Positions 29,591-47,702 of a DNA stretch of 64,000 bases are shown piece after piece. This stretch comes from a bacterium (GTDB lineage: Bacteria; UBA8248). The notes under the pieces were generated by a model. That model made no database searches and was not told where the DNA came from. It saw nothing but the letters and a program-made list of their open reading frames with translations. A program made the translations under genes and the position numbers. The stretch spans positions 1 to 64,000 of the forward strand of contig JAJEJD010000015.1 of NCBI GenBank assembly GCA_022828125.1, given 5' to 3'. Each line of letters opens with the position of its first letter. Positions within the stretch are counted from its first letter, which is position 1.

Positions 29591-30730
29591 CTAGGTGAAG
29601 ACGATGGCAATCTCGTCATCGCCCGCATCGCGGGCCAGGCGGAAGGGGGCATCGTAGGTCAGCAGACCGTCGCGATCCGAAAAACCCATATCCGTGTACT
29701 GGCACTTGGGCGCGGTGATGGTGCAGATGTTCCCGGCCCTGTGGCCGACCTGCACTTTCAGGGGGAGCCGCGCGCCATCTTCCCAATCGGCGAACACATC
29801 GTCGGTGGCCTTGAGCACGGCCTCGGGGTCGAAAGAACCCGAGGGCGCGCGGCCCGTCACGACGGCGTTCAGGTGCCCGCCCGACATGTTGGCGCTTTGA
29901 CGCAAGACCACCTCGTTGTTCATGGCGAAGCGGATGTTCGCCACGTCGAAATGGAAGCCTCCGAACGAAAAGCCGCTCATGAGGATGGGTTCGGGCGCCT
30001 GCGCATCGTAGGACGCCCCGTCAGGGACCGGCGCGTCGCTCACCTCGAAATCGGCCGCCTCGAACTCCCAATCCACCGTGGGAACGCCGTCCAGGGGGCA
30101 GTTGATGGAAAAACTCCCCATGCAGCCCAGATACATGACCCGTAAGCCGTCGATGAACGCCGTCAGGCAGATCCTCGTATAGCCCGATTTATCGGAGACG
30201 GGCGCATAGGCGACGGAGGCGTCCTCGACGACGGTTTCCTTCATCGCACACGCCTTGAACAGCAGCCCGTAATCCGGCGCGACGCCCGCTGCGCCTGAAC
30301 CGCGCAACTCGGTGGTGAAGGAGATCTGCGCGGAGCGCTTTCCCGGAATCGAAGGAAAGGGCGAGAGGCTCGCATCCTTCACCGCGCGCTCCAGCTGCTC
30401 CACGCTGATCTCGTGGGAGAAGTTGCCCGCCCGGAACAGTTCCGAAGCGACAGCAGGCCTGTCCAGCAGGTAGGCCGTGCCCGCAGCGGGCGCCGCATCC
30501 CAGGCGTCGTCCACCGTGAGCGTCTCCGAGGCCGCGTCGAAACCGCTCACCTTTCTCCTTTGGCCGACGCCCATTCCCCGAATCGTGCGCAGCACCGAGC
30601 CGTTCCAGAAATCATCATCCTCTGAGAGCGCGGCGTCCACGAGGGTGGAGGCGTCGGCGGAATCCGCCGCCAGTTCCCTCTCTTCCGTCGCGCCGATAGT
30701 CTGCCGATCCATCAAAATCGTATCGCCCAT
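29591..30730 (-). CDS. Phage tail tube protein
   Basis: Protein of 379 aa, ATG 30730 behind AGGAG. Beta-rich with typical tail-tube features: FRAGNFSHEISVEQLERAVKDASL, the SISFTTEL-like strand SAQISFTTELRGSG, and a C-terminal fold ending ARDAGDDEIAIVF. Two domains are likely: an N-terminal Ig- or decoration-like part of about 90 aa and the tube domain. Placement between tail terminator and chaperones supports the call. Confidence 0.7.
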   Translation of the reverse strand: MGDTILMDRQTIGATEERELAADSADASTLVDAALSEDDDFWNGSVLRTIRGMGVGQRRKVSGFDAASETLTVDDAWDAAPAAGTAYLLDRPAVASELFRAGNFSHEISVEQLERAVKDASLSPFPSIPGKRSAQISFTTELRGSGAAGVAPDYGLLFKACAMKETVVEDASVAYAPVSDKSGYTRICLTAFIDGLRVMYLGCMGSFSINCPLDGVPTVDWEFEAADFEVSDAPVPDGASYDAQAPEPILMSGFSFGGFHFDVANIRFAMNNEVVLRQSANMSGGHLNAVVTGRAPSGSFDPEAVLKATDDVFADWEDGARLPLKVQVGHRAGNICTITAPKCQYTDMGFSDRDGLLTYDAPFRLARDAGDDEIAIVFT

Positions 30731-30802
30731 CCCCTGTTCTCCTCCGTCTATTTTTAGGGGCGAAGGGGCATCCCTCGCCGGATGTTGTTCAATGCTCTCG
30801 AA

Positions 30803-31336
30803 TCAATCCCGCCGAATCCGCTCTATCGCCCGGATACGGATTTCGGCGTAATGGCAAAGCACGTTCCCGAATGTTCTGAGTTCAATCAGGTCCACCTGCG
30901 GAGGCTGAAGGCGCTCCAGGGAGCGGACGCGCGGGGCGCCTGAATCATCGAGGAGGCGAAGGGCTTTATCATCCCGGAAGCGGTCGCAAACCTCCTCGAT
31001 CAGATCCTGGAAGACCGCCTCGCTGCCCGCCGCGTCCTCGGCGCTCATGATGCCGAACAGCAAGAACGTGTGGGTTCGTCTGCTGATGCCGGCGGGCGTG
31101 AAGCCGCCGGACGCATTCGAGCCGAGCGATGCAACCTCTTCGCCTGCTCTCTCGCGCGTCAGCACCCAGCCCCTGATCTGGGCGAGGCCGCCGCCCGTCT
31201 CCCAGCGGAACAGGTCCAGGTATTTCCCCAGGTCGGCCGACCAGCGCTGATAGGCGTGGACCCGCCCCGCCTCCGGTACGCTCGATATTTCCGCCAAAAC
31301 GGCGTCGCCGATTTCCCTGTACCGTGATTTAGCCAC
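30803..31336 (-). CDS. Probable phage tail terminator/completion protein
   Basis: Protein of 177 aa, GTG 31336 with AGGAG 6 bases upstream, overlapping the stop of the HK97 gp10-like gene by 8 bases. Sequence (KSRYREIGDAVLAEISSVPEAGRVHAYQRW and a later VVDLIELRTFG-like strand) has no signature I can name. The position between the gp10-like connector and the tail tube is that of the tail terminator in many siphophages. Confidence 0.55.
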   Translation of the reverse strand: MAKSRYREIGDAVLAEISSVPEAGRVHAYQRWSADLGKYLDLFRWETGGGLAQIRGWVLTRERAGEEVASLGSNASGGFTPAGISRRTHTFLLFGIMSAEDAAGSEAVFQDLIEEVCDRFRDDKALRLLDDSGAPRVRSLERLQPPQVDLIELRTFGNVLCHYAEIRIRAIERIRRD

Positions 31337-31838
31337 CGACTCTCCTCGCAATCTCATCAAGCAGTTCACGAATGCGCCTATCGATTCGGCTCTGGTTATC
31401 CTTAAAAGCACGCGCGAACATGCGGCGCGCCCGTATCCCGCGCCGGGCGGTCGCGCGGGCAACGAGGAAGGCCACGCTTTCGAAGTCCCCGTCATCTGAT
31501 TCCAGGTTCCGGGCTACCCAGCGATACAGAGGCGATCCCTCCCTCCAGGGCGGCATCGCGCCGCCCGGCGGGCGTCCGGATTCCACGTACCCGGCGTATG
31601 GGGCGCGCGAGGCGACTACGCCGCGCAACGCGCCTCGCCCCTCTCCCTTGATCTCGGTGAAAATGCTCCCTCGCAGGTTTCCGCTCGCGCCGACGGGCGT
31701 TCGCGTCATGACCTCGCGCCTGAGCATTTCGGTAATCTCGGCCATCGCCTCGCGCGCGAGGCGGAAAACCTCCACCTCCTCCCGCGCGATCGGCGGCGCC
31801 TTCACAAGGGTTTCGAACGTTGTATATCGACGAGGCAC
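31329..31838 (-). CDS. HK97 gp10-like head-tail connector
   Basis: Protein of 169 aa from GTG 31838, with GGGGAG upstream. The pattern TRTPVGASGNLRGSI, APYAGYVESGRPPG and a basic C-terminal region (ARRGIRARRMFARAF) matches the HK97 gp10 / minor tail connector family, which closes the head-tail junction. Confidence 0.75.
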   Translation of the reverse strand: MPRRYTTFETLVKAPPIAREEVEVFRLAREAMAEITEMLRREVMTRTPVGASGNLRGSIFTEIKGEGRGALRGVVASRAPYAGYVESGRPPGGAMPPWREGSPLYRWVARNLESDDGDFESVAFLVARATARRGIRARRMFARAFKDNQSRIDRRIRELLDEIARRVGG

Positions 31839-31856
31839 CTTGACTCCCCTTTTGGC

Positions 31857-32567
31857 CTAGCGGTCTTTGGATGTGCCGTGCGTGAAGTACTCGCCGCGCG
31901 CCATGGAGAGGAGCGCGTCCCAATCGAGAGACGCGCCCGCCGGACCCGCCACTTCGCCCTCTTTGCGGCCGAGATGGTTCTGGTATTTGCGCTCGAGCTC
32001 CCGGCCCAGGCGCGTGTATTCTCCAGACTTGCTCTGGTAGTCCACCGAATCCGCCGCGAGGGTCGGGGTCGAGGACTGCGCGAAGCGGCGGGCCAGAAGG
32101 TGACAGCCCTCCGCGGCGGCCAGCCAGGCCACGGCGGTCAGATCGTTTTCGGGAACGCTCGTACGCGCATCATCAGCCGTGTGCTTTCGCGTATAGAACA
32201 GGCGCAGCGTGTGGCCCATTTGAGGGACGAAGTACATGAGCCTGAACTTGGCCGCCGGGGTTCCTTTCGCGTAGATGATCCAGGCGCTCCTCCGTAAATA
32301 AGAGGGCTTTCTCTCCCCCTGGGGATATTCCACCTCCCGGATGAAGGAGAGGGAATCGTCCCAGTCTTCCGGCAGGGAAAAATCGAACGTCTCGCTGTCA
32401 CCCGCGTAATCGGCGAACGAGACGAGCGGCCTGTCCCTGCTGTAGCGCGTGAGTGCGGCGTTCACCAGATCGGCGTAGTCCGCCTCCTCGACCCCGAACT
32501 CCCGGGGCAGCGCGCCCGCCTTCAACAGCACCTTCACCTCCTTGATGATCGTCTGCCTGCCGGCCAT
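31857..32567 (-). CDS. Phage head-tail adaptor-like protein
   Basis: Protein of 236 aa, ATG 32567 (MAGRQTIIKEVKVLL) with GAGGAG upstream. Mainly helical, with an acidic N-terminal part and AAAEGCHLLARRFAQ. It occupies the slot of the gp6/gp15-type connector between capsid and gp10-like genes. Family assignment rests on position. Confidence 0.5.
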   Translation of the reverse strand: MAGRQTIIKEVKVLLKAGALPREFGVEEADYADLVNAALTRYSRDRPLVSFADYAGDSETFDFSLPEDWDDSLSFIREVEYPQGERKPSYLRRSAWIIYAKGTPAAKFRLMYFVPQMGHTLRLFYTRKHTADDARTSVPENDLTAVAWLAAAEGCHLLARRFAQSSTPTLAADSVDYQSKSGEYTRLGRELERKYQNHLGRKEGEVAGPAGASLDWDALLSMARGEYFTHGTSKDR

Positions 32568-32610
32568 TTCTGTTTTCTCCTCTCGTCTCACTCACCAGAT
32601 GCGGGCGGTC

Positions 32611-32952
32611 TCAAGTCTTGAGTGTGAGCTTGGCCTCGAACGTGAACGAAGCTCCCTCCCCGCCGACGGCCCATACAAGCCTGAGCCAGGGGCCGATGTT
32701 CGCGAGCTTGACGAGGGTTTTCCCGGCCGAGGTGATTTCCGCGGATTCGGTGTGGACGAAAGCCGCTTCATCGTCCGCCGGGCCGGTGTGCACTTCGAAT
32801 TCAAGCGTAGGCGAAGCGCCCGAAACCGCCGTCACGTCGATGAACAAGAGCGCCTCGGTGAAGCGGCTCACCTCGAACGCCGTGCTGCCTCCCGCGGCGA
32901 CGCGGGCCGCGGGAGGAGCGAGAACGATGGTGTGGGTTCGCCTGTCGGACAT
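32611..32952 (-). CDS. Small phage virion protein, possible capsid decoration
   Basis: Beta-rich 113-aa protein (FEVSRFTEALLFIDVTAVSG, FEVHTGPADD, GPWLRLVWAVGG) from ATG 32952 with GAGGAG 6 bases upstream. It follows the capsid gene by 32 bases, where head decoration or fibre proteins often lie. No firm homology recognised. Confidence 0.5.
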   Translation of the reverse strand: MSDRRTHTIVLAPPAARVAAGGSTAFEVSRFTEALLFIDVTAVSGASPTLEFEVHTGPADDEAAFVHTESAEITSAGKTLVKLANIGPWLRLVWAVGGEGASFTFEAKLTLKT

Positions 32953-32984
32953 GGCTTCTCCTCTGAAGGGCAAACGCCGCGCGA

Positions 32985-35063
32985 CTACTCGGGCGCGCCG
33001 CGGTAGAAGCCGCGAAAGTCCAACACGGCGCCGCCGTAGACGTGCCTGATCTTGTAGCGAATCTTGTCCGCGCTGAACCCACTGCCGGCCGTGGGGTTGT
33101 CCTCGATAAACAACTCGGGCTCGCGCATGTCGTCCATGAAGCCGATCTCGATGGTGTCCATGAGGGCCGGGTCGGCGATCATGTACCAGTCGTTCGCGTC
33201 GGTGAGTTCGGGCACCCACAAGGGCTCCACACCCAGGCGGTTGATGAAGCTCGGCTGGTTGGAGTTTCCGCCCTCGACGACCTTGACGGGCGACTGGGTG
33301 ACCTCGAACGCCTCTTCGAGCAGTTCCGTGGGGTGGACGAGGTATTTGGGCCGCGCCTGCGCCGCCACTTCGACGCCCTCTTCCCCGTAAAACGTCTGCT
33401 GACCCATCGCCTTGATGGCGGCGACAGCGTTGTCATACGTGAGTTCGTTCGCGGAGGTGTTGTTGTGGTCGGCGTGGAACAGCGCGTCCCCGTCGTAGAT
33501 GTCCGCGTTGGACGCCAGGAAATCGAACACGAAGCCGTTCAGGGTGCGCTGGGCCGCGCGGGCGAGGCGCTGGGGGATCATGCGGATTGCGCCCATGTCG
33601 TCGTTCTGGATCATCTCCCAGGTGAGGTCCTCCACGCCGCCGCGCTTGGCCACGGCATACGTCACCTCCTCATCCGTCGGGGAGGTGAGCGCCGGATAGG
33701 TGGCCTGCTCGGCGACCGTTTGCAGATCTCCGTAGCCGCCGACGCGCACCCGGCGGTTCGTGCGGAAATCCTTGACGGGCGCTATGGACGAGACGATCTT
33801 CTTCCACTGGTGGAACCGCTCGTCCCTGAAATCGCGCAGCATGGCGCGGCGGATGGAATCCCCGAACGCCTCGCCCCACGTGCTCGTCTCCAAGGAGGCG
33901 GAGAGGCGGCGCACGCCGTTCCAGTCCTCGGCGGCGCGGTGATAGTGGAACGTCTCGGCGAAGAACTGGCGCGGGGTGAGGCGATGGCCCGTGAAATCCT
34001 GAAACGCCTCGCTCATGAAGCGGTAGGGCCGCTCGCCGTCGACCACCTCGTCGCGCGAACTCCAAAGCCCGTCGAGAGCCGCCCGCTTGCGGTCCGCCTC
34101 GTCGCGCATCACCTCGGCACTCGCACCGAAACCACGGAGCGCGCCGCTCGCCGTGAGTTTTTCCAGTGTGGCCGCCTCGACGCGGATCGCCTCTTCGATC
34201 TCCTCCTCCGTGAAGCTCCCCTCGGCGAACTGGGTGCGCATCTTCTCCTGAACGGCTTCGGGAAGTGCCGAGGACGCGAGTTTCCGGGTGAGTATTCCGC
34301 GCGCAGCGGCTCCGGTTACGGCTCCATCCTCCACGGATTCTTCTCCTTTTTTCTTCAGGTCCAGTTCGAGGCCTGCGTCCTCACAGGCCGCGAGGAACTG
34401 TTGCGGCGTCCAGGCATCGCCGAGCTTCTTGCCCGATTCGGGCGCCACGCTTTTGAGTTTCTTTCCGAGTTTTTCGAACATCTTCACCTCCGATGTAGTG
34501 GAATGATTGGCGGCGAGACCCAGAATGCCGCCCCCGAGCTTGCCTTTGTGCACGACGTCGACGGAGTGAACCGCCAGAATCTTTTCGAAATGCATAACGA
34601 GCCCGTCGGCCTCTTCGCGGAACTCCGCCTGCGCGAGCACGTCGAAGGAAAAACCGAAAGGCTCCTCAAGGCCCCGTGCCAGCGCATCGTGCGCCAGCGC
34701 CTGGAACCAGGCCGCTGAGCGCGAAACCGCAAACGTGCTCAAAAGCCCCTCCTCGCCCATGCGGACTTCGCGGTGCCAGCCAACCAGGTTCCTGATGTCG
34801 GGGCCGCCTGAGCCGGTATGGTTGGCAAAGGCCTGCGCGCCCTCGAACAGGGGAGCGGCCTCGCGCAGAACGTTGCGGGGCAGGAACCATTCCCCGTCCC
34901 TCGAGTAGCCGGCTCTTGCGATCAGCACGTCGAAATCCCAGGCTTCGCCCGGTGGCTGCGCTTCTTTCGCCACCGCGCGGATGAGGTGGCCATGCAGCCT
35001 AAGAGGGTGAGAATCCTCTCGCGCCTCTGCACGCGCCCAAATGCGGTTCATCCATCTTTTCAA
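32985..35063 (-). CDS. Fused prohead protease-scaffold-major capsid protein
   Basis: Single reading frame of 692 aa. Residues about 10-180 resemble a prohead serine protease (HLIRAVAKEAQ, FANHTGSGG, LEEPFGFSFDVLAQA with a likely Ser nucleophile, AVHSVDVV). An acidic, helical linker (about 190-300) could be the scaffold. The rest is an HK97-fold capsid region (FMSEAFQDFTGHRLTPRQFF, SPTDEEVTYAVAKRGG, FHADHNNTSANELTYDNAV, NRLGVEPLWVPELTDANDWYMIADP). The start is TTG 35063 with AAGGAG upstream; longer frames read into the AT-rich regulatory region. Protease-capsid fusions are known but uncommon. Confidence 0.82.
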   Translation of the reverse strand: MKRWMNRIWARAEAREDSHPLRLHGHLIRAVAKEAQPPGEAWDFDVLIARAGYSRDGEWFLPRNVLREAAPLFEGAQAFANHTGSGGPDIRNLVGWHREVRMGEEGLLSTFAVSRSAAWFQALAHDALARGLEEPFGFSFDVLAQAEFREEADGLVMHFEKILAVHSVDVVHKGKLGGGILGLAANHSTTSEVKMFEKLGKKLKSVAPESGKKLGDAWTPQQFLAACEDAGLELDLKKKGEESVEDGAVTGAAARGILTRKLASSALPEAVQEKMRTQFAEGSFTEEEIEEAIRVEAATLEKLTASGALRGFGASAEVMRDEADRKRAALDGLWSSRDEVVDGERPYRFMSEAFQDFTGHRLTPRQFFAETFHYHRAAEDWNGVRRLSASLETSTWGEAFGDSIRRAMLRDFRDERFHQWKKIVSSIAPVKDFRTNRRVRVGGYGDLQTVAEQATYPALTSPTDEEVTYAVAKRGGVEDLTWEMIQNDDMGAIRMIPQRLARAAQRTLNGFVFDFLASNADIYDGDALFHADHNNTSANELTYDNAVAAIKAMGQQTFYGEEGVEVAAQARPKYLVHPTELLEEAFEVTQSPVKVVEGGNSNQPSFINRLGVEPLWVPELTDANDWYMIADPALMDTIEIGFMDDMREPELFIEDNPTAGSGFSADKIRYKIRHVYGGAVLDFRGFYRGAPE

Positions 35064-35190
35064 GGGAAACTCCTTTCTGGCTGGTCTTTCATGGTTCCGG
35101 TTACCGGCGAAGCGCCGGAGCCGCCGCCTCCGGGAAACAGGGGGCGGGCGCAACGGCGACAATCTAGAGCAAGGAGCCTCGAACACGGGC

Positions 35191-35212
35191 CGCGCAAATG
35201 CGGGGAAATGCG
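35191..35212. promoter_or_regulatory. Shared operator-like sequence, capsid-side copy
   Basis: A 22-base sequence identical to one at 47784-47805. Its core AAATGCGGGGAAATGCG (35196-35212) repeats AAATGCG with a 10-base period, one helical turn, as expected of a site bound on one DNA face. It lies about 130 bases upstream of the capsid gene start. Confidence 0.65.
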
Positions 35213-35266
35213 TATTTGCCGTCTTTTTTTGCGGAATTTTGAATTTGCTAATTGAAAAATTTAACA

Positions 35267-35283
35267 AAATGCGGTAAATTACG
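35267..35283. promoter_or_regulatory. Degenerate third copy of the operator-like core
   Basis: AAATGCGGTAAATTACG matches the 17-base core of the shared sequence at 13 positions and keeps the 10-base spacing. It sits on the dacA side of the divergent region, next to the weak promoter-like sequence. Confidence 0.4.
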
Positions 35284-37349: not shown

Positions 37350-37484
37350 AACCCCTTCCCCCTTTTTGAATGAGAACGCGCACTGCGAATCAACAAATCT
37401 TTTGCGGGAAGAATCCCGCTCCTGTCTTTGCTAGAATCCACCGCATCGACAAATAAACCACAACGTAATCGAGGAGTCATCTTC

Positions 37485-37982
37485 ATGCCGGAAAGACCGA
37501 ACACGCCGCAAGTCATCCTCCGCCACATTCAGGGCACGCAGCTCCAGATGTTCACCACCACGGGCAAGCACTCCTACGTGCTCGACGAACCCGAAACACG
37601 GGGCGGCACGGACCTCGCCGCCACGCCGTTCGAGTTCTTCATCGCAGGGCACGCGGGCTGAGGCCTCTACACGCTGCTGGGAGCAGCGAAGGCAAAGGGC
37701 ATCCGGATCGACGACGTGGAGGTGCACGCGGAGTTCAAGCGGAACATAACGCCTAAATTTCACGCGGATTATCACGCGGACCCCGAGCGGCGAAAACTCT
37801 CCATCGGCGTCATCCGCACGAGCTACTACATCCACGGCGACGTAACGGAAGAACAAAAGGCGGAGCTTCTGGATGAACTCGAAAACTGCCCCATCCACAA
37901 CACGCTGATGACGCCGCCCAGGCTCGAGGAGCGGATCGTCGTCTTAGAGAAAGACGAAACCGCGCCAAAAGAGATTTCATAA
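37485..37982 (+). CDS. OsmC-family selenoprotein with in-frame UGA (Sec59)
   Basis: OsmC/Ohr-fold peroxidase-type protein of 165 aa. The frame is interrupted only by TGA at 37659-37661, which falls exactly at the first catalytic Cys of the family: FFIAGHAG-U-GLYTLLGAAKAKGI. The second conserved Cys is present in NCPIHNTL. A perfect hairpin begins 11 bases after the TGA. The same frame then continues with good OsmC sequence (VEVHAEFKRNITPKF) to a TAA. I read it as selenocysteine rather than a broken gene. Start ATG 37485 follows GAGGAG. Such a protein would reduce organic peroxides using a selenolate. Confidence 0.88.
37672..37688 (+). promoter_or_regulatory. SECIS-like recoding hairpin in osmC
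   Basis: CGCTGCT-GGG-AGCAGCG forms a perfect 7-bp stem with a GGG loop at 37679-37681, 18-20 bases after the first base past the UGA region. Bacterial SECIS elements are short stems just downstream of UGA with G at the start of a small apical loop. Confidence 0.75.
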
Positions 37983-38011: not shown

Positions 38012-38304
38012 GGGGTTGTTGGAAAAGTCCTCTCCGACCTTCGAGATTGTTCGCCGTAGGGACAGGCCTCCGTGCCTGTCCATTCCCCCTTGCAGAGCGC
38101 CCGACAACCACTCCCCCCTTGAGGGGGAGTCGCAGAAGCCGAGCGTTTTTTGCGAAGGCTGATGCGGTGGGGGGTAAAATGCGTTTTATTGCCATTCCGG
38201 ATTATACCCCCCACCGAATCGCTTTCGGGCTTACGCCCTCAGCTCTTCGACTCCCCCTCAAGGGGGGAGTGATTCCTCTCTCCTCGGACTTTTTCAACAA
38301 CCCC
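38012..38304. repeat. MITE-like composite element, 293 bp
   Basis: Outer ends GGGGTTGTTGGAAAAGTCC (38012-38030) and its near-perfect reverse complement (38286-38304, 18 of 19 pairs) enclose a perfect 24-base inverted pair (38109-38132 and 38248-38271) and a further inner pair (38166-38176 and 38205-38215). The element fills the gap between the osmC and guanine deaminase genes. No gene is visible in it. Confidence 0.8.
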
Positions 38305-42147: not shown

Positions 42148-42702
42148 ATGAGCGAAATGACGAAGGAAAAAGAGAAGATACTCGTGTACGAACCCGTGGC
42201 GGAGGCTCCGGGCGCGAGCGCCGTCATGGCCGCGCGGCCCGAGAGCTTAAACGGCAAGAGCGTGGGTCTCATCAACAACACGAAGGATTTCACGGATGAG
42301 ATTTTCGACGTGATGGGCGCCGCGCTTGAAGAGCAATTCCCCGGCGTGCGCGTCGTGCGCTACCGGAAGGAATCCGTGAGCGGCGCATCGCCCGCCCTGA
42401 TGGAGCAGGTGGAAGGAGAGTGCGACGCCGTTGTTTCCGCACTCGGCGACTGAGGCTCGTGCACGTCGTGGAGTATCCACGACAGCGTCGCTTTAGAGAA
42501 ACGAGGGCTGGCCACGGTCACGGTCGTCACCGACGCCTTCGAGGCCTACGCGAAGCAACTCACCAAGCTGCACAAGATGAGCGAGCTTCCCCTCGTCACG
42601 CTGCCCCACCCCATTGCGGGCAGAAAGCGCGAGGAGGTGGACGAGATGTCGGCGAAAGCGAGCGCGCATCTGGCGTCCGCCCTCACGCAGGCGAGCGCTT
42701 GA
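42148..42702 (+). CDS. UGSC-motif selenoprotein with in-frame UGA (Sec102)
   Basis: Protein of 184 aa, if TGA 42451-42453 is read as selenocysteine. The frame before it ends VVSALGD and continues as GSCTSWSIHDSVALEKRGL, giving the signature U-G-S-C known from the UGSC selenoprotein family of marine metagenomes. Sec and Cys three residues apart form a redox pair like CxxC. The downstream part is protein-like to TGA 42700. Start ATG 42148 has a strong AAAGGAGGG. It follows the two LLM genes by 146 bases and precedes its partner gene by 7. Confidence 0.9.
42465..42483 (+). promoter_or_regulatory. SECIS-like recoding hairpin in the UGSC gene
   Basis: GTCGTGGA-GTA-TCCACGAC is a perfect 8-bp stem with a GTA loop at 42473-42475, starting 11 bases after the UGA. 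Stem start, stem length and loop size nearly match the hairpin found after the UGA of the osmC gene. Confidence 0.78.
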
Positions 42703-44641: not shown

Positions 44642-45997
44642 CTACCCCTCCAGGTTCATGCCGAACTGGCCCGCGAGGTGGGTGATGAGCTTGCCGGCGG
44701 CGTCATCGCTCATCCAGCCGCGCGAGGTCGCCGTTTCGAGCGCCGTGCTGACGCGCAGAAGCGCCTCGGACATCTTATCCGTATCGCGCACGGAGATATC
44801 CGGCAGAACAGGCGAGACGCCCGGGCGCAGCGCTTCCTCGGGCAGCGCGCCTGCGCGGCGGGCTTCTTCGAGCTGCTTGTCGGCCATGGCTTGCAGGATA
44901 TGGCGCACGGTGCGCTGGCGGCGCGTCATCTTCTTGAGCGTCGGCTGATCCATCGACTCGGCCGACGCGCGGTTCACGTCCTCTCCCTGGGCGAACCAGT
45001 GGGAGGGAACCCCCACGCCGCCGAGCAACAGGCCCCGCATCATCCTGGCGATACCCTGCGCGCCGGACTCGCCGCCTTTCAGGTCGGGCGAGACGGCCTG
45101 CCACTCCTCTTTCTCGTTGTGCACGCGCACGCTCGAGGGCTTGGGCGCGACGCCGTTCTCGGCAAGCCACTCGGCTATCTTCTCGGGGCCTGCGCCCTTG
45201 AGCGTCACGTCGTAGATGAAGCTGTTCTGCAGGCGCGCGCGTTCGACGGCATCGAAGATGAAGCGCTCATAGGTGTCTATCCAGTCGATGGCGGCGAGCA
45301 GGTCCGAAGCGCCCCGCGCGGCGTCGCTCGCCTTGTTGATCTGGAACAGGAACGCCTCCCCGTCCGTGAAGCGCTCGCGCTCCCGCCGGGCGGAGGCGCT
45401 CAGATAGCCGCGCGGGTCGCCGCCAAGGACCGTCTTGACCCGCTTGCCCTTGCGCGCCGCGCCGCCCGGCTCCCGGGCGCGCAGGACGACCCCTATCGGC
45501 AGGGCGCAGTTGTCCGGGTCTGTCACCACCTCCTCTATCAGGCGCGGGCTGACGTAGCCCAGGCGGACGCGCCCCTCGAAGCGCGAGACGGCGACGGGCA
45601 GTAAGAGTTCGCCGAAGATGCCGAGTTCGGAGACCAGCCGCTCGAAGCGGATGTCCATCTGGTTCACGGGGTCGGCCCAAAAGGCCCTGACTGCCTGCAG
45701 GGCGCGCTCATCCTCGGAATGCCAGCTCACTCCCTCGCCCACGACGTGATCCGTCACGATCTCGATGAGGCGCTGGCCCATGAGGTTCGTGAGCCATAAT
45801 TCATACGCAAGCGCCTGCATGCGCGCGTGGGTGTAGGGCGAAACACCGCTCCGCCCCTCGCCGAGGGGCCGCCAGATCCGCTCGTCCGGATCAACCGCCG
45901 CGCTCGTTCGCCTGGTACGCTGCGCGGCCTCCCCTTTTCTCTTGAATCCCGACTTCCGCCCGGGAGCCTTCACCCTCTTCACGCTCTCCATCTTCAT
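44642..45997 (-). CDS. Phage portal protein
   Basis: Portal of 451 aa, forming the DNA gateway at one capsid vertex. Typical segments are NLMGQRLIEIVTDHVVGEGVSWHS, ELGIFGELLLPV, INKASDAARGASDLLAAIDWIDTYERFIFDAVERARLQNSF and GVGVPSHWFAQGEDVNRASAESMDQPTLKKMTRRQ. The ATG at 45997 overlaps the terminase nuclease stop (ATGA). Normally protease and capsid genes follow directly; here they lie 9.5 kb further left. Confidence 0.88.
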   Translation of the reverse strand: MKMESVKRVKAPGRKSGFKRKGEAAQRTRRTSAAVDPDERIWRPLGEGRSGVSPYTHARMQALAYELWLTNLMGQRLIEIVTDHVVGEGVSWHSEDERALQAVRAFWADPVNQMDIRFERLVSELGIFGELLLPVAVSRFEGRVRLGYVSPRLIEEVVTDPDNCALPIGVVLRAREPGGAARKGKRVKTVLGGDPRGYLSASARRERERFTDGEAFLFQINKASDAARGASDLLAAIDWIDTYERFIFDAVERARLQNSFIYDVTLKGAGPEKIAEWLAENGVAPKPSSVRVHNEKEEWQAVSPDLKGGESGAQGIARMMRGLLLGGVGVPSHWFAQGEDVNRASAESMDQPTLKKMTRRQRTVRHILQAMADKQLEEARRAGALPEEALRPGVSPVLPDISVRDTDKMSEALLRVSTALETATSRGWMSDDAAGKLITHLAGQFGMNLEG

Positions 45998-46647
45998 CTC
46001 CTCTTGAGCATCCGGTGCTCGAAAACCTGCGGCGTCACCGTTCCCCCGGCGATGGGGGCCAGCACGCCCTCGCTCTGCGCCAGGGATTCGGCCAGCCGCG
46101 CATAGGCGCAGGCGAAGCCGAAGTGATTCTCGTTCCGCTCATACGCCAGCACCGTCTCACCGGAGGAGCGGATGCGCGGTTTTTTCCTCAAATTCATCAG
46201 GTGACGCTCCACCTCGGCGAGGAGCGCCTCATCCCCTGTGTCCCTGGGACTCGGCAGCAGGACCCGCCCGGCCCCCTCGTGAAACTCCTCGACCAGGTGA
46301 TCCAGAAGGTCCTCGCGGTTCATCCGCACGTGGCGGCGCTCGACGCCCAGAAACGAGACGTCCCTGGCCTGCATCTCCCCTTCGGTGTGCCGCCAGATGA
46401 AGCCGCCGTCGGGGTTCAGGTCGTACACCGCGCGCGCCGCCTGGGTGTGGGGTCCGCCGTCTATGACGAACGCCTCCACACCCAGGCCGGAGAACACGGC
46501 GCGGCACCGCTCGACGAGCCGCTCGATGGGAGGCGCCTCGAAATAAATCCACCGGGCGGGCCGGCCCTCCTCATGGTAGCGCTCGCGCACCGCGAGGGCG
46601 CAAGCGTCGCCCGTATCGATTCCGCCGAAGCGGTGGGGCGCGCTCAT
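45994..46647 (-). CDS. Terminase large subunit, separate nuclease domain
   Basis: Protein of 217 aa resembling the C-terminal RNase H-like nuclease of GpA-type terminases. The metal-binding acids fit FGGIDTGDACAL, EAFVIDGGPHTQ and the end motif NENHFGFACAYARLAE. It begins at ATG 46647, overlapping the stop of the ATPase gene (ATGA). In most phages these two domains are one protein. Confidence 0.8.
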   Translation of the reverse strand: MSAPHRFGGIDTGDACALAVRERYHEEGRPARWIYFEAPPIERLVERCRAVFSGLGVEAFVIDGGPHTQAARAVYDLNPDGGFIWRHTEGEMQARDVSFLGVERRHVRMNREDLLDHLVEEFHEGAGRVLLPSPRDTGDEALLAEVERHLMNLRKKPRIRSSGETVLAYERNENHFGFACAYARLAESLAQSEGVLAPIAGGTVTPQVFEHRMLKRR

Positions 46648-47702
46648 GCGGGCGCCTCCGCCAGGCGGTACGGCGCGGCGTCCCGCAGACTTCTAAGCAG
46701 TTCAAGCGAAATCGGCTGGGTGTCGCCCGCATCGGGGATGGCGAGGGCCGAGCAGCGAAAGCGCGCCTTTTCACTCGGAAGACGGGCGGCGGCCCATTTC
46801 GCGGCGATCCGGTCCAGGCGTATTGCGCCGACCGAGAGCTGGGAGAGGCGATAGCTCCTGTGCCGCCGGTTCGCCCGCGCGGCCACCCACCGTCCCGCTC
46901 CTCCCTTGAGCGCGCCGCCGCACTCCGGACAAGCGAGCGCGCACGCACGCAGGATGCCGGGCCAGTACTCCTCCGGAACGCTCTCCGTGCGGCACGTCGG
47001 GCATCTCACATGCCAGCGCCTCCGATCCCCCGCCTCGTACATGGCGTGAATGCCGGCACCCGGGGTTCTGCCGACGGCCAGGTTGAGCGTCAGAGCGAGG
47101 GGCGAGGCGTCGATGCGGTCGTTCGACCATTTGAGGTTGTCCGGCGGAAGATCGTCCACCTCGTCGCGAACGAGCACGTCGAGCGGGATGGATATGGCGT
47201 TGCCGATGTCTTTGAGGCCCAGGACGTAGAGAAAACGCGAGCCCCCGCGTCCGGGGAATTCCTTCAGGCCCTTGGGGGATGCGCCCTTGTATCTGCCCTC
47301 GCGCATGATCGAAGCGATGTTCTCGCGCCTGAGCGCGGGGCGCACGCGCGTCTGATCGAAACGATCCGCGAAATCCTGATCCGGCAGAAAATAGCCCACG
47401 TTCAGGCGGTGAACGATGACGCAGTAGAGCGCGAAACCGATGGCGAGGGTGGTCAAGCCCACCTGCGCGCCCTTCAGGACGCTGATGGTCCGATCGGGCA
47501 TGCGGCAATTTATAATCTCATCCAGCGCGGCGACGATTTCCAGAAGCGCCTCTCTGCCCTCGAAGGTGAACGCGCCGGTGTCGGTCGACATCTCGCCGGT
47601 CAGGAACCGGGCCAGCCCGCGCGCCTCGCCCGGAAAGCGCGACGCACCGCCCGCCGCGAGGGCCATGCCGGGCGTATGGATGATTTTCAGGGATTTGCGC
47701 AA
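46644..47702 (-). CDS. Terminase large subunit, separate ATPase domain
   Basis: DNA-packaging motor ATPase of 352 aa, GpA-like. A Walker A-like VLKGAQVGLTTLAI lies at about residue 75, and Walker B is LDVLVRDEVDDLP. The zinc-type cysteines CPTCRTE and ACPECGG follow, as in GpA proteins. The frame ends before the nuclease, which is the next gene. Start TTG 47702 has GGAGG 10 bases upstream. The shared 22-base operator-like sequence lies 82 bases further upstream. Confidence 0.85.
   Translation of the reverse strand: MRKSLKIIHTPGMALAAGGASRFPGEARGLARFLTGEMSTDTGAFTFEGREALLEIVAALDEIINCRMPDRTISVLKGAQVGLTTLAIGFALYCVIVHRLNVGYFLPDQDFADRFDQTRVRPALRRENIASIMREGRYKGASPKGLKEFPGRGGSRFLYVLGLKDIGNAISIPLDVLVRDEVDDLPPDNLKWSNDRIDASPLALTLNLAVGRTPGAGIHAMYEAGDRRRWHVRCPTCRTESVPEEYWPGILRACALACPECGGALKGGAGRWVAARANRRHRSYRLSQLSVGAIRLDRIAAKWAAARLPSEKARFRCSALAIPDAGDTQPISLELLRSLRDAAPYRLAEAPA

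What the first reader, a model, noticed from the sequence alone, without database searches (positions are those of the whole stretch)
37485..37982. OsmC-family protein with selenocysteine at the peroxidatic position
A single TGA at 37659 replaces the first catalytic Cys of OsmC. The second Cys (NCPIHNTL) is kept. A perfect 7-bp stem with GGG loop lies at the expected SECIS distance. Its geometry matches the hairpin in the UGSC gene 4.8 kb away, and such agreement is unlikely by chance. This is a Sec-based organic hydroperoxide reductase candidate.
Basis: partly seen in the sequence, partly recalled or inferred. Interest (0 to 1): 0.65.

Follow-up and report, generated by a model that had tools for sequence, protein, structure and literature searches.

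The report
A second selenocysteine form of OsmC
A small redox protein of an uncultured bacterium reads a stop codon as selenocysteine at its active site; selenium forms of this protein family are known, but this one sits on a separate branch and seems to have acquired selenium on its own.

Summary
Window 37485-37982 encodes a Pfam OsmC protein with one in-frame TGA (37659-37661), aligned to the invariant first Cys; the second Cys (C135) is kept. The genome has tRNA-Sec, SelA, SelB and a SelD that itself carries a TGA. TGA is kept in 7 of 7 orthologues (six of one genus, one of another at 70% identity), with purifying selection on both sides of it. A 7-bp hairpin with a GGG triloop, 10 nt after TGA, keeps all pairs in all seven. 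Of 447 TGA-ended reading frames of at least 50 codons in the window, only this gene and UGSC have such a hairpin (criteria set after seeing examples). Sequencing error, pseudogene and code change are effectively excluded.

Sec-OsmC is not new: listed since 2005 (UxxT motif; NCBIfam NF041052), and all 18 genomes held for this phylum carry UxxT copies (71 genes). But this protein is not of that family: motif U-G-L-Y, 59.6 bits against a cut-off of 95; one common Sec clade is weakly rejected (AU p 0.022). It branches with "CTSM" Cys-type OsmC proteins.

"Organic hydroperoxide reductase" is unproven: the Ohr model scores 14.2 bits (cut-off 88.85) and the Ohr catalytic Glu is Phe here. A selenol-based redox role is inferred.

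The parts
37485..37982 (+). Sec-OsmC gene, 165 aa with U59 (UGLY type)
   Evidence: translation with TGA=U; Pfam OsmC 51.1 bits; orthologues
37659..37661 (+). in-frame TGA read as selenocysteine, at the first catalytic Cys
   Evidence: TGA in 7 of 7 orthologues
37672..37688 (+). bacterial SECIS-like hairpin, 7 bp with GGG triloop, 10 nt after TGA
37887..37889 (+). second conserved Cys (C135, NCPIHNTL)
37471..37476 (+). GAGGAG, likely ribosome-binding site 8 nt before ATG
   Evidence: read; a GAGGAGGAG stands before the G007 orthologue too
42148..42702 (+). UGSC selenoprotein gene (TGA 42451-42453; hairpin 42465-42483), in-window comparison
   Evidence: (NF041046 139.9 bits)

Best explanation
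The gene encodes a true selenoprotein of the OsmC fold. During translation SelB, carrying Sec-tRNA-Sec, reads UGA 37659 as selenocysteine under direction of the hairpin at 37672-37688. The selenol of U59 takes the place of the reactive first thiol of OsmC proteins, and C135 would resolve the oxidised form as an intramolecular selenenylsulfide. Most likely it reduces a small oxidised substrate (a peroxide or other electrophile), but the substrate is unknown. It belongs to a branch separate from the known UxxT Sec-OsmC family, and Sec probably replaced Cys there independently. Shown by sequence: family, TGA conservation, machinery genes, hairpin, branch. Inferred: Sec insertion itself, the selenenylsulfide step, the peroxidase-like activity.
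For: Own genome: tRNA-Sec 75.9 bits over its cut-off, SelB 384.5 bits over its cut-off, SelA 575.9 bits over its cut-off, SelD 334.9 bits with a TGA of its own. TGA in 7 of 7 orthologues found in the 18 genomes held for the phylum, and no Cys orthologue of this branch there at E<=1e-20. dN/dS in 21 pairs is at most 0.14 upstream and at most 0.29 downstream of TGA, with dS above 1 against G007. All 7 hairpin pairs hold in 6 distinct sequences, varying only to G-U. SelD of the same genome has a like hairpin: 10 nt spacer, 7 bp with one G-U, GGA loop. UxxT relatives (nearly all of the same phylum) have changes on both sides of a pair in 16 cells, with GTA loops in 49 of 51. U59 and C135 lie in invariant columns. 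The predicted model's best PDB matches are OsmC/Ohr chains.
Against: No protein-level proof of Sec. The hairpin pairs of this branch vary only by G-U, none on both sides, and their synonymous conservation is weak: 5 of 6 invariant-residue codons unchanged in all seven against 36 of 95 elsewhere (Fisher p 0.039), but p 0.38 within the genus and 0.16 for G000 against G007. The rejection of a single Sec clade is modest (AU p 0.022) and long branches are in play. The structure model is only fair (mean pLDDT 69) and its superpositions have high rmsd.
Confidence: 0.9

Rival explanations
1. It is an organic hydroperoxide reductase (Ohr/OsmC peroxidase) in which Sec merely replaces the peroxidatic Cys.
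For: OsmC fold, first reactive residue and second Cys kept.
Against: Ohr model 14.2 bits against cut-off 88.85, and no hit to the OsmC-peroxiredoxin model TIGR03562 at E<=1; the Ohr Glu position holds Phe49; nearest branch is CTSM-type OsmC, several members of which lie in frames over 400 aa, like the 400-aa PDB chain 9wo1.
Confidence: 0.35
2. The Sec residue is ancestral to all Sec-OsmC proteins (UGLY, UxxT, UTSMT) and Cys forms are reversions.
For: Sec sits at the same column in all of them; both UGLY and UxxT occur in the same genomes.
Against: UGLY groups with Cys proteins at 93/95 support and UxxT stands on its own 100/100 branch; one clade of both rejected at p 0.022.
Confidence: 0.2
3. 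The TGA is a sequencing error or a nonsense mutation in a decaying gene.
For: None found beyond the bare possibility; the named sources are metagenome assemblies.
Against: Same TGA in 7 separate genomes; dN/dS at most 0.29 downstream.
Confidence: 0.01
4. TGA is a sense codon (e.g. Trp) in this organism, or a programmed stop separating two peptides.
For: A GTG start lies downstream at 37716.
Against: TGA aligns to an invariant Cys, not Trp; the G007 orthologue ends with TGA; tRNA-Sec, SelA, SelB present; residues between TGA and that GTG stay conserved.
Confidence: 0.03

Closest known systems
OsmC-like selenoprotein, UxxT type (NCBIfam NF041052 OsmC_like_Se; Sargasso Sea 2005, PMC1088965)
   Same: OsmC fold, Sec at the same first-Cys column, a second Cys later in the chain, hairpin after TGA
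   Different: Motif U-G-L-Y not U-L-L-T; 59.6 bits against cut-off 95; separate branch
CTSM-type OsmC proteins, incl. PDB 9wo1 (400-aa 'Osmotically inducible protein C')
   Same: Best solved match (phmmer E 5.1e-11), same branch, CPVH second motif
   Different: Cys not Sec in nearly all; 29-38% identity in the 9 aligned; several are parts of longer chains
Sec OsmC of two other families: L035 (UTSMT) and L042 (UMSMT)
   Same: Sec at the same column, same broad branch, CPVH motif
   Different: Not close kin of UGLY; hairpins differ; SelB was not found at E<=1e-60 in L042's genome, though tRNA-Sec was
Ohr organic hydroperoxide reductase
   Same: Fold and two reactive positions
   Different: Ohr Glu replaced by Phe49, model not met

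Membership tests
OsmC superfamily (PF02566) | Score over gathering cut-off 27.5 bits | tested here: met
   51.1 bits
Bacterial selenoprotein | In-frame TGA aligned to a catalytic Cys of homologues | tested here: met
   TGA in 7 of 7 orthologues
Bacterial selenoprotein | Sec machinery in the genome | tested here: met
   tRNA-Sec, SelB, SelA, SelD
Bacterial selenoprotein | Hairpin just after UGA with a small G-bearing apical loop | tested here: met
Bacterial selenoprotein | Sec found in the protein | not testable with these tools
   needs proteomics or 75Se labelling
NF041052 OsmC_like_Se (UxxT) | Score over curated cut-off 95 bits | tested here: not met
   59.6 bits
NF041052 OsmC_like_Se (UxxT) | UxxT motif | tested here: not met
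   UGLY in the six of the genus, UGLL in G007
NF041052 OsmC_like_Se (UxxT) | Common clade with UxxT sequences | tested here: not met
   AU p 0.022, modest
Ohr organic hydroperoxide reductase | Family model cut-off (TIGR03561, 88.85 bits) | tested here: not met
   14.2 bits
Ohr organic hydroperoxide reductase | Catalytic Glu before Cys | tested here: not met
   F49 aligned to that Glu in 6mjn, by sequence alignment only
Ohr organic hydroperoxide reductase | Catalytic Arg in the N-terminal loop | tested here: inconclusive
   N-terminus falls outside the alignments
Ohr organic hydroperoxide reductase | Peroxidase activity on organic hydroperoxides | not testable with these tools
   needs an enzyme assay

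The most novel reading that the evidence does not exclude
This is a second Sec-OsmC subfamily that gained selenocysteine independently of the known UxxT family, within CTSM-type OsmC proteins. It lies in a bacterial phylum that has turned OsmC and UGSC into large sets of Sec paralogues, and its substrate is something other than a plain organic hydroperoxide.
Probability: 0.45. Interest if true: 0.5.

Novelty: new variant of a known kind. Interest (0 to 1): 0.4.

Why it matters
It suggests Cys-to-Sec exchange at one and the same active-site position in separate branches of one small fold, which makes OsmC a natural test of what selenium buys at that site. It also points to a phylum rich in Sec paralogues (71 UxxT OsmC genes in 18 genomes; 8 UGSC genes in this genome), whose proteins standard gene callers would cut at the TGA.

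Tried and rejected
Sequencing error, pseudogene, sense TGA and programmed stop were weighed and rejected (see rivals). I first thought that the UxxT family lacked the second Cys, because the profile alignment ended early; reading the sequences showed a conserved GC[FY] there, so I dropped that contrast. A viral-contig search with A2 found no relative among 37 pattern matches. The protein search of the genome-contig collection (84,980 species) gave only five same-genus records, so no named outside orthologue was found. Rfam reported nothing in the window but one tRNA at gathering scores. Synonymous-site conservation in the stem was tested and is only marginal. Paper searches: selenoprotein with UBA8248 gave 0 papers; OsmC with selenocysteine and selenoprotein gave 6 papers, of which four were opened for passages (PMC1088965, PMC2398784, PMC9312934, PMC13188914) and none of the passages seen describes a UGLY type; the other two were seen as listings only. 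A search for OsmC with hydrolase domain and crystal structure gave one paper, seen as a listing; I found no paper on 9wo1.

Full report
What was checked. The stretch 37485-37982 reads as one 165-residue protein with a single in-frame TGA at 37659-37661. Pfam finds OsmC at 51.1 bits, gathering 27.5. In a 12-sequence alignment with homologues the TGA residue and C135 both lie in invariant columns.

Machinery. The window's genome (3.92 Mb, 32 contigs, 97% complete) has tRNA-Sec, SelB, SelA and SelD, the last with its own TGA. SelB at E <= 1e-60 was found in 17 of 21 genomes tested, among them all seven that carry the orthologue. tRNA-Sec was found in 11 of 12 genomes tested, again including all seven.

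Conservation. Among the 18 genomes held for the phylum, 7 have an orthologue (E <= 1e-20): the window's own, five others of its genus (94-97% identity) and one of another genus (70%). All 7 have one TGA at the same codon. Five of these correspond to named records of metagenome-assembled genomes, four titled Nitrospinota or Nitrospinae and one 'bacterium'. Nei-Gojobori dN/dS over the 21 pairs does not exceed 0.14 upstream or 0.29 downstream of TGA, while dS against G007 is above 1. A neutral stop or a sequencing error does not look like this. The genome G004 of the same genus (79% complete) gave no close match.

Hairpin. CGCTGCT-GGG-AGCAGCG starts 10 nt after TGA. All seven pairs hold in the six distinct sequences, with G-U in three cells and no change on both sides. 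UGSC (spacer 11, 8 bp, GTA) and SelD (spacer 10, 7 bp with one G-U, GGA) of the same genome have similar hairpins. Only 2 of 447 TGA-ended frames of at least 50 codons in the window, OsmC and UGSC, have a stem of >=7 bp with a G-led triloop 17-20 nt on; the background is 91 of 127,880 positions. This test was set after the fact. The UxxT OsmC genes, nearly all of the same phylum, give an independent check that such hairpins are real: 51 distinct sequences, 97% Watson-Crick in the five inner pairs, 16 cells changed on both sides, GTA loop in 49, and none of 1000 column shuffles as high. Related sequences can exceed such shuffles without structure, so the double changes matter more than the shuffle count.

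Family and branch. NCBIfam has a model for Sec-OsmC, NF041052; the window protein scores 59.6 bits against its cut-off of 95. Over 386 genomes, 23 have a match over the cut-off: all 18 of the phylum and five others. Counting the rows by hand, the phylum holds 71 such genes, each with one TGA (3 in the window's genome). A tree of 76 rows puts the UGLY branch (100/98) with CTSM-type Cys proteins (93/95) and the UxxT proteins on a separate branch (100/100). Holding UGLY and UxxT together is rejected at p 0.022; the branches are long, so this is moderate evidence. Sec also appears at the same column in two CTSM-type proteins of other families, L035 and L042.

Function. The best solved relative is 9wo1, a 400-residue OsmC protein. 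The predicted model (mean pLDDT 69) has OsmC/Ohr chains as its best PDB matches. In the alignment with 6mjn the Ohr Glu falls on Phe49, and the Ohr model is far from met. PMC8945050 (passages) says that YhfA proteins keep both Cys but lack the Arg and Glu, and that their biochemistry is open; PMC5962072 (abstract and passages) gives the role of Arg19 and Glu51 in Ohr. A selenol-based redox role, with C135 resolving, is therefore inferred, and hydroperoxide reduction remains one option.

What is known. OsmC-like selenoproteins with UxxT were reported from the Sargasso Sea (3 sequences, PMC1088965, passages), in the ocean survey (5 sequences, PMC2398784, passages) and in reviews (PMC9312934, PMC13188914, passages). 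The branch described here is a new variant of that known kind. The name UBA8248 for the phylum and the sponge origin of the record names are my recall; PMC9531527 (passages) mentions UBA8248 in Ircinia sponges, but I did not tie the window to that name by any search.

Noticed in passing
G000 contigs C15:647686-648114, C31:197903-198328, C5:49666-50067 and 17 related genomes: Large expansion of UxxT Sec-OsmC paralogues in this phylum: 71 genes over the NF041052 cut-off in 18 of 18 genomes, up to 10 in one (counted by hand).
   Followed up: partly
window 42148-42702 and seven other places in G000: Eight UGSC-family genes in the window's genome at E<=1e-20, each with one TGA; 18 of 18 genomes of the phylum have UGSC genes. 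The lineage looks rich in selenoproteins.
   Followed up: partly
window 29594-35267 and 44645-47702, minus strand: Phage structural genes (tail tube, capsid, terminase) lie on both sides of a block of ordinary genes holding OsmC and UGSC, and the parts covered by relatives are collinear at about 89-93% for 31.5-38 kb. Could be a split domesticated prophage or a gene-transfer-agent-like cluster.
   Followed up: no
window 38032-38287: Intergenic stretch after OsmC that breaks the alignment with relatives (breaks between 37996 and 38380); repeat-like by eye.
   Followed up: no
L042 (G078): OsmC with TGA at the Cys column in a genome with tRNA-Sec (77.8 bits) but no SelB at E<=1e-60.
   Followed up: partly
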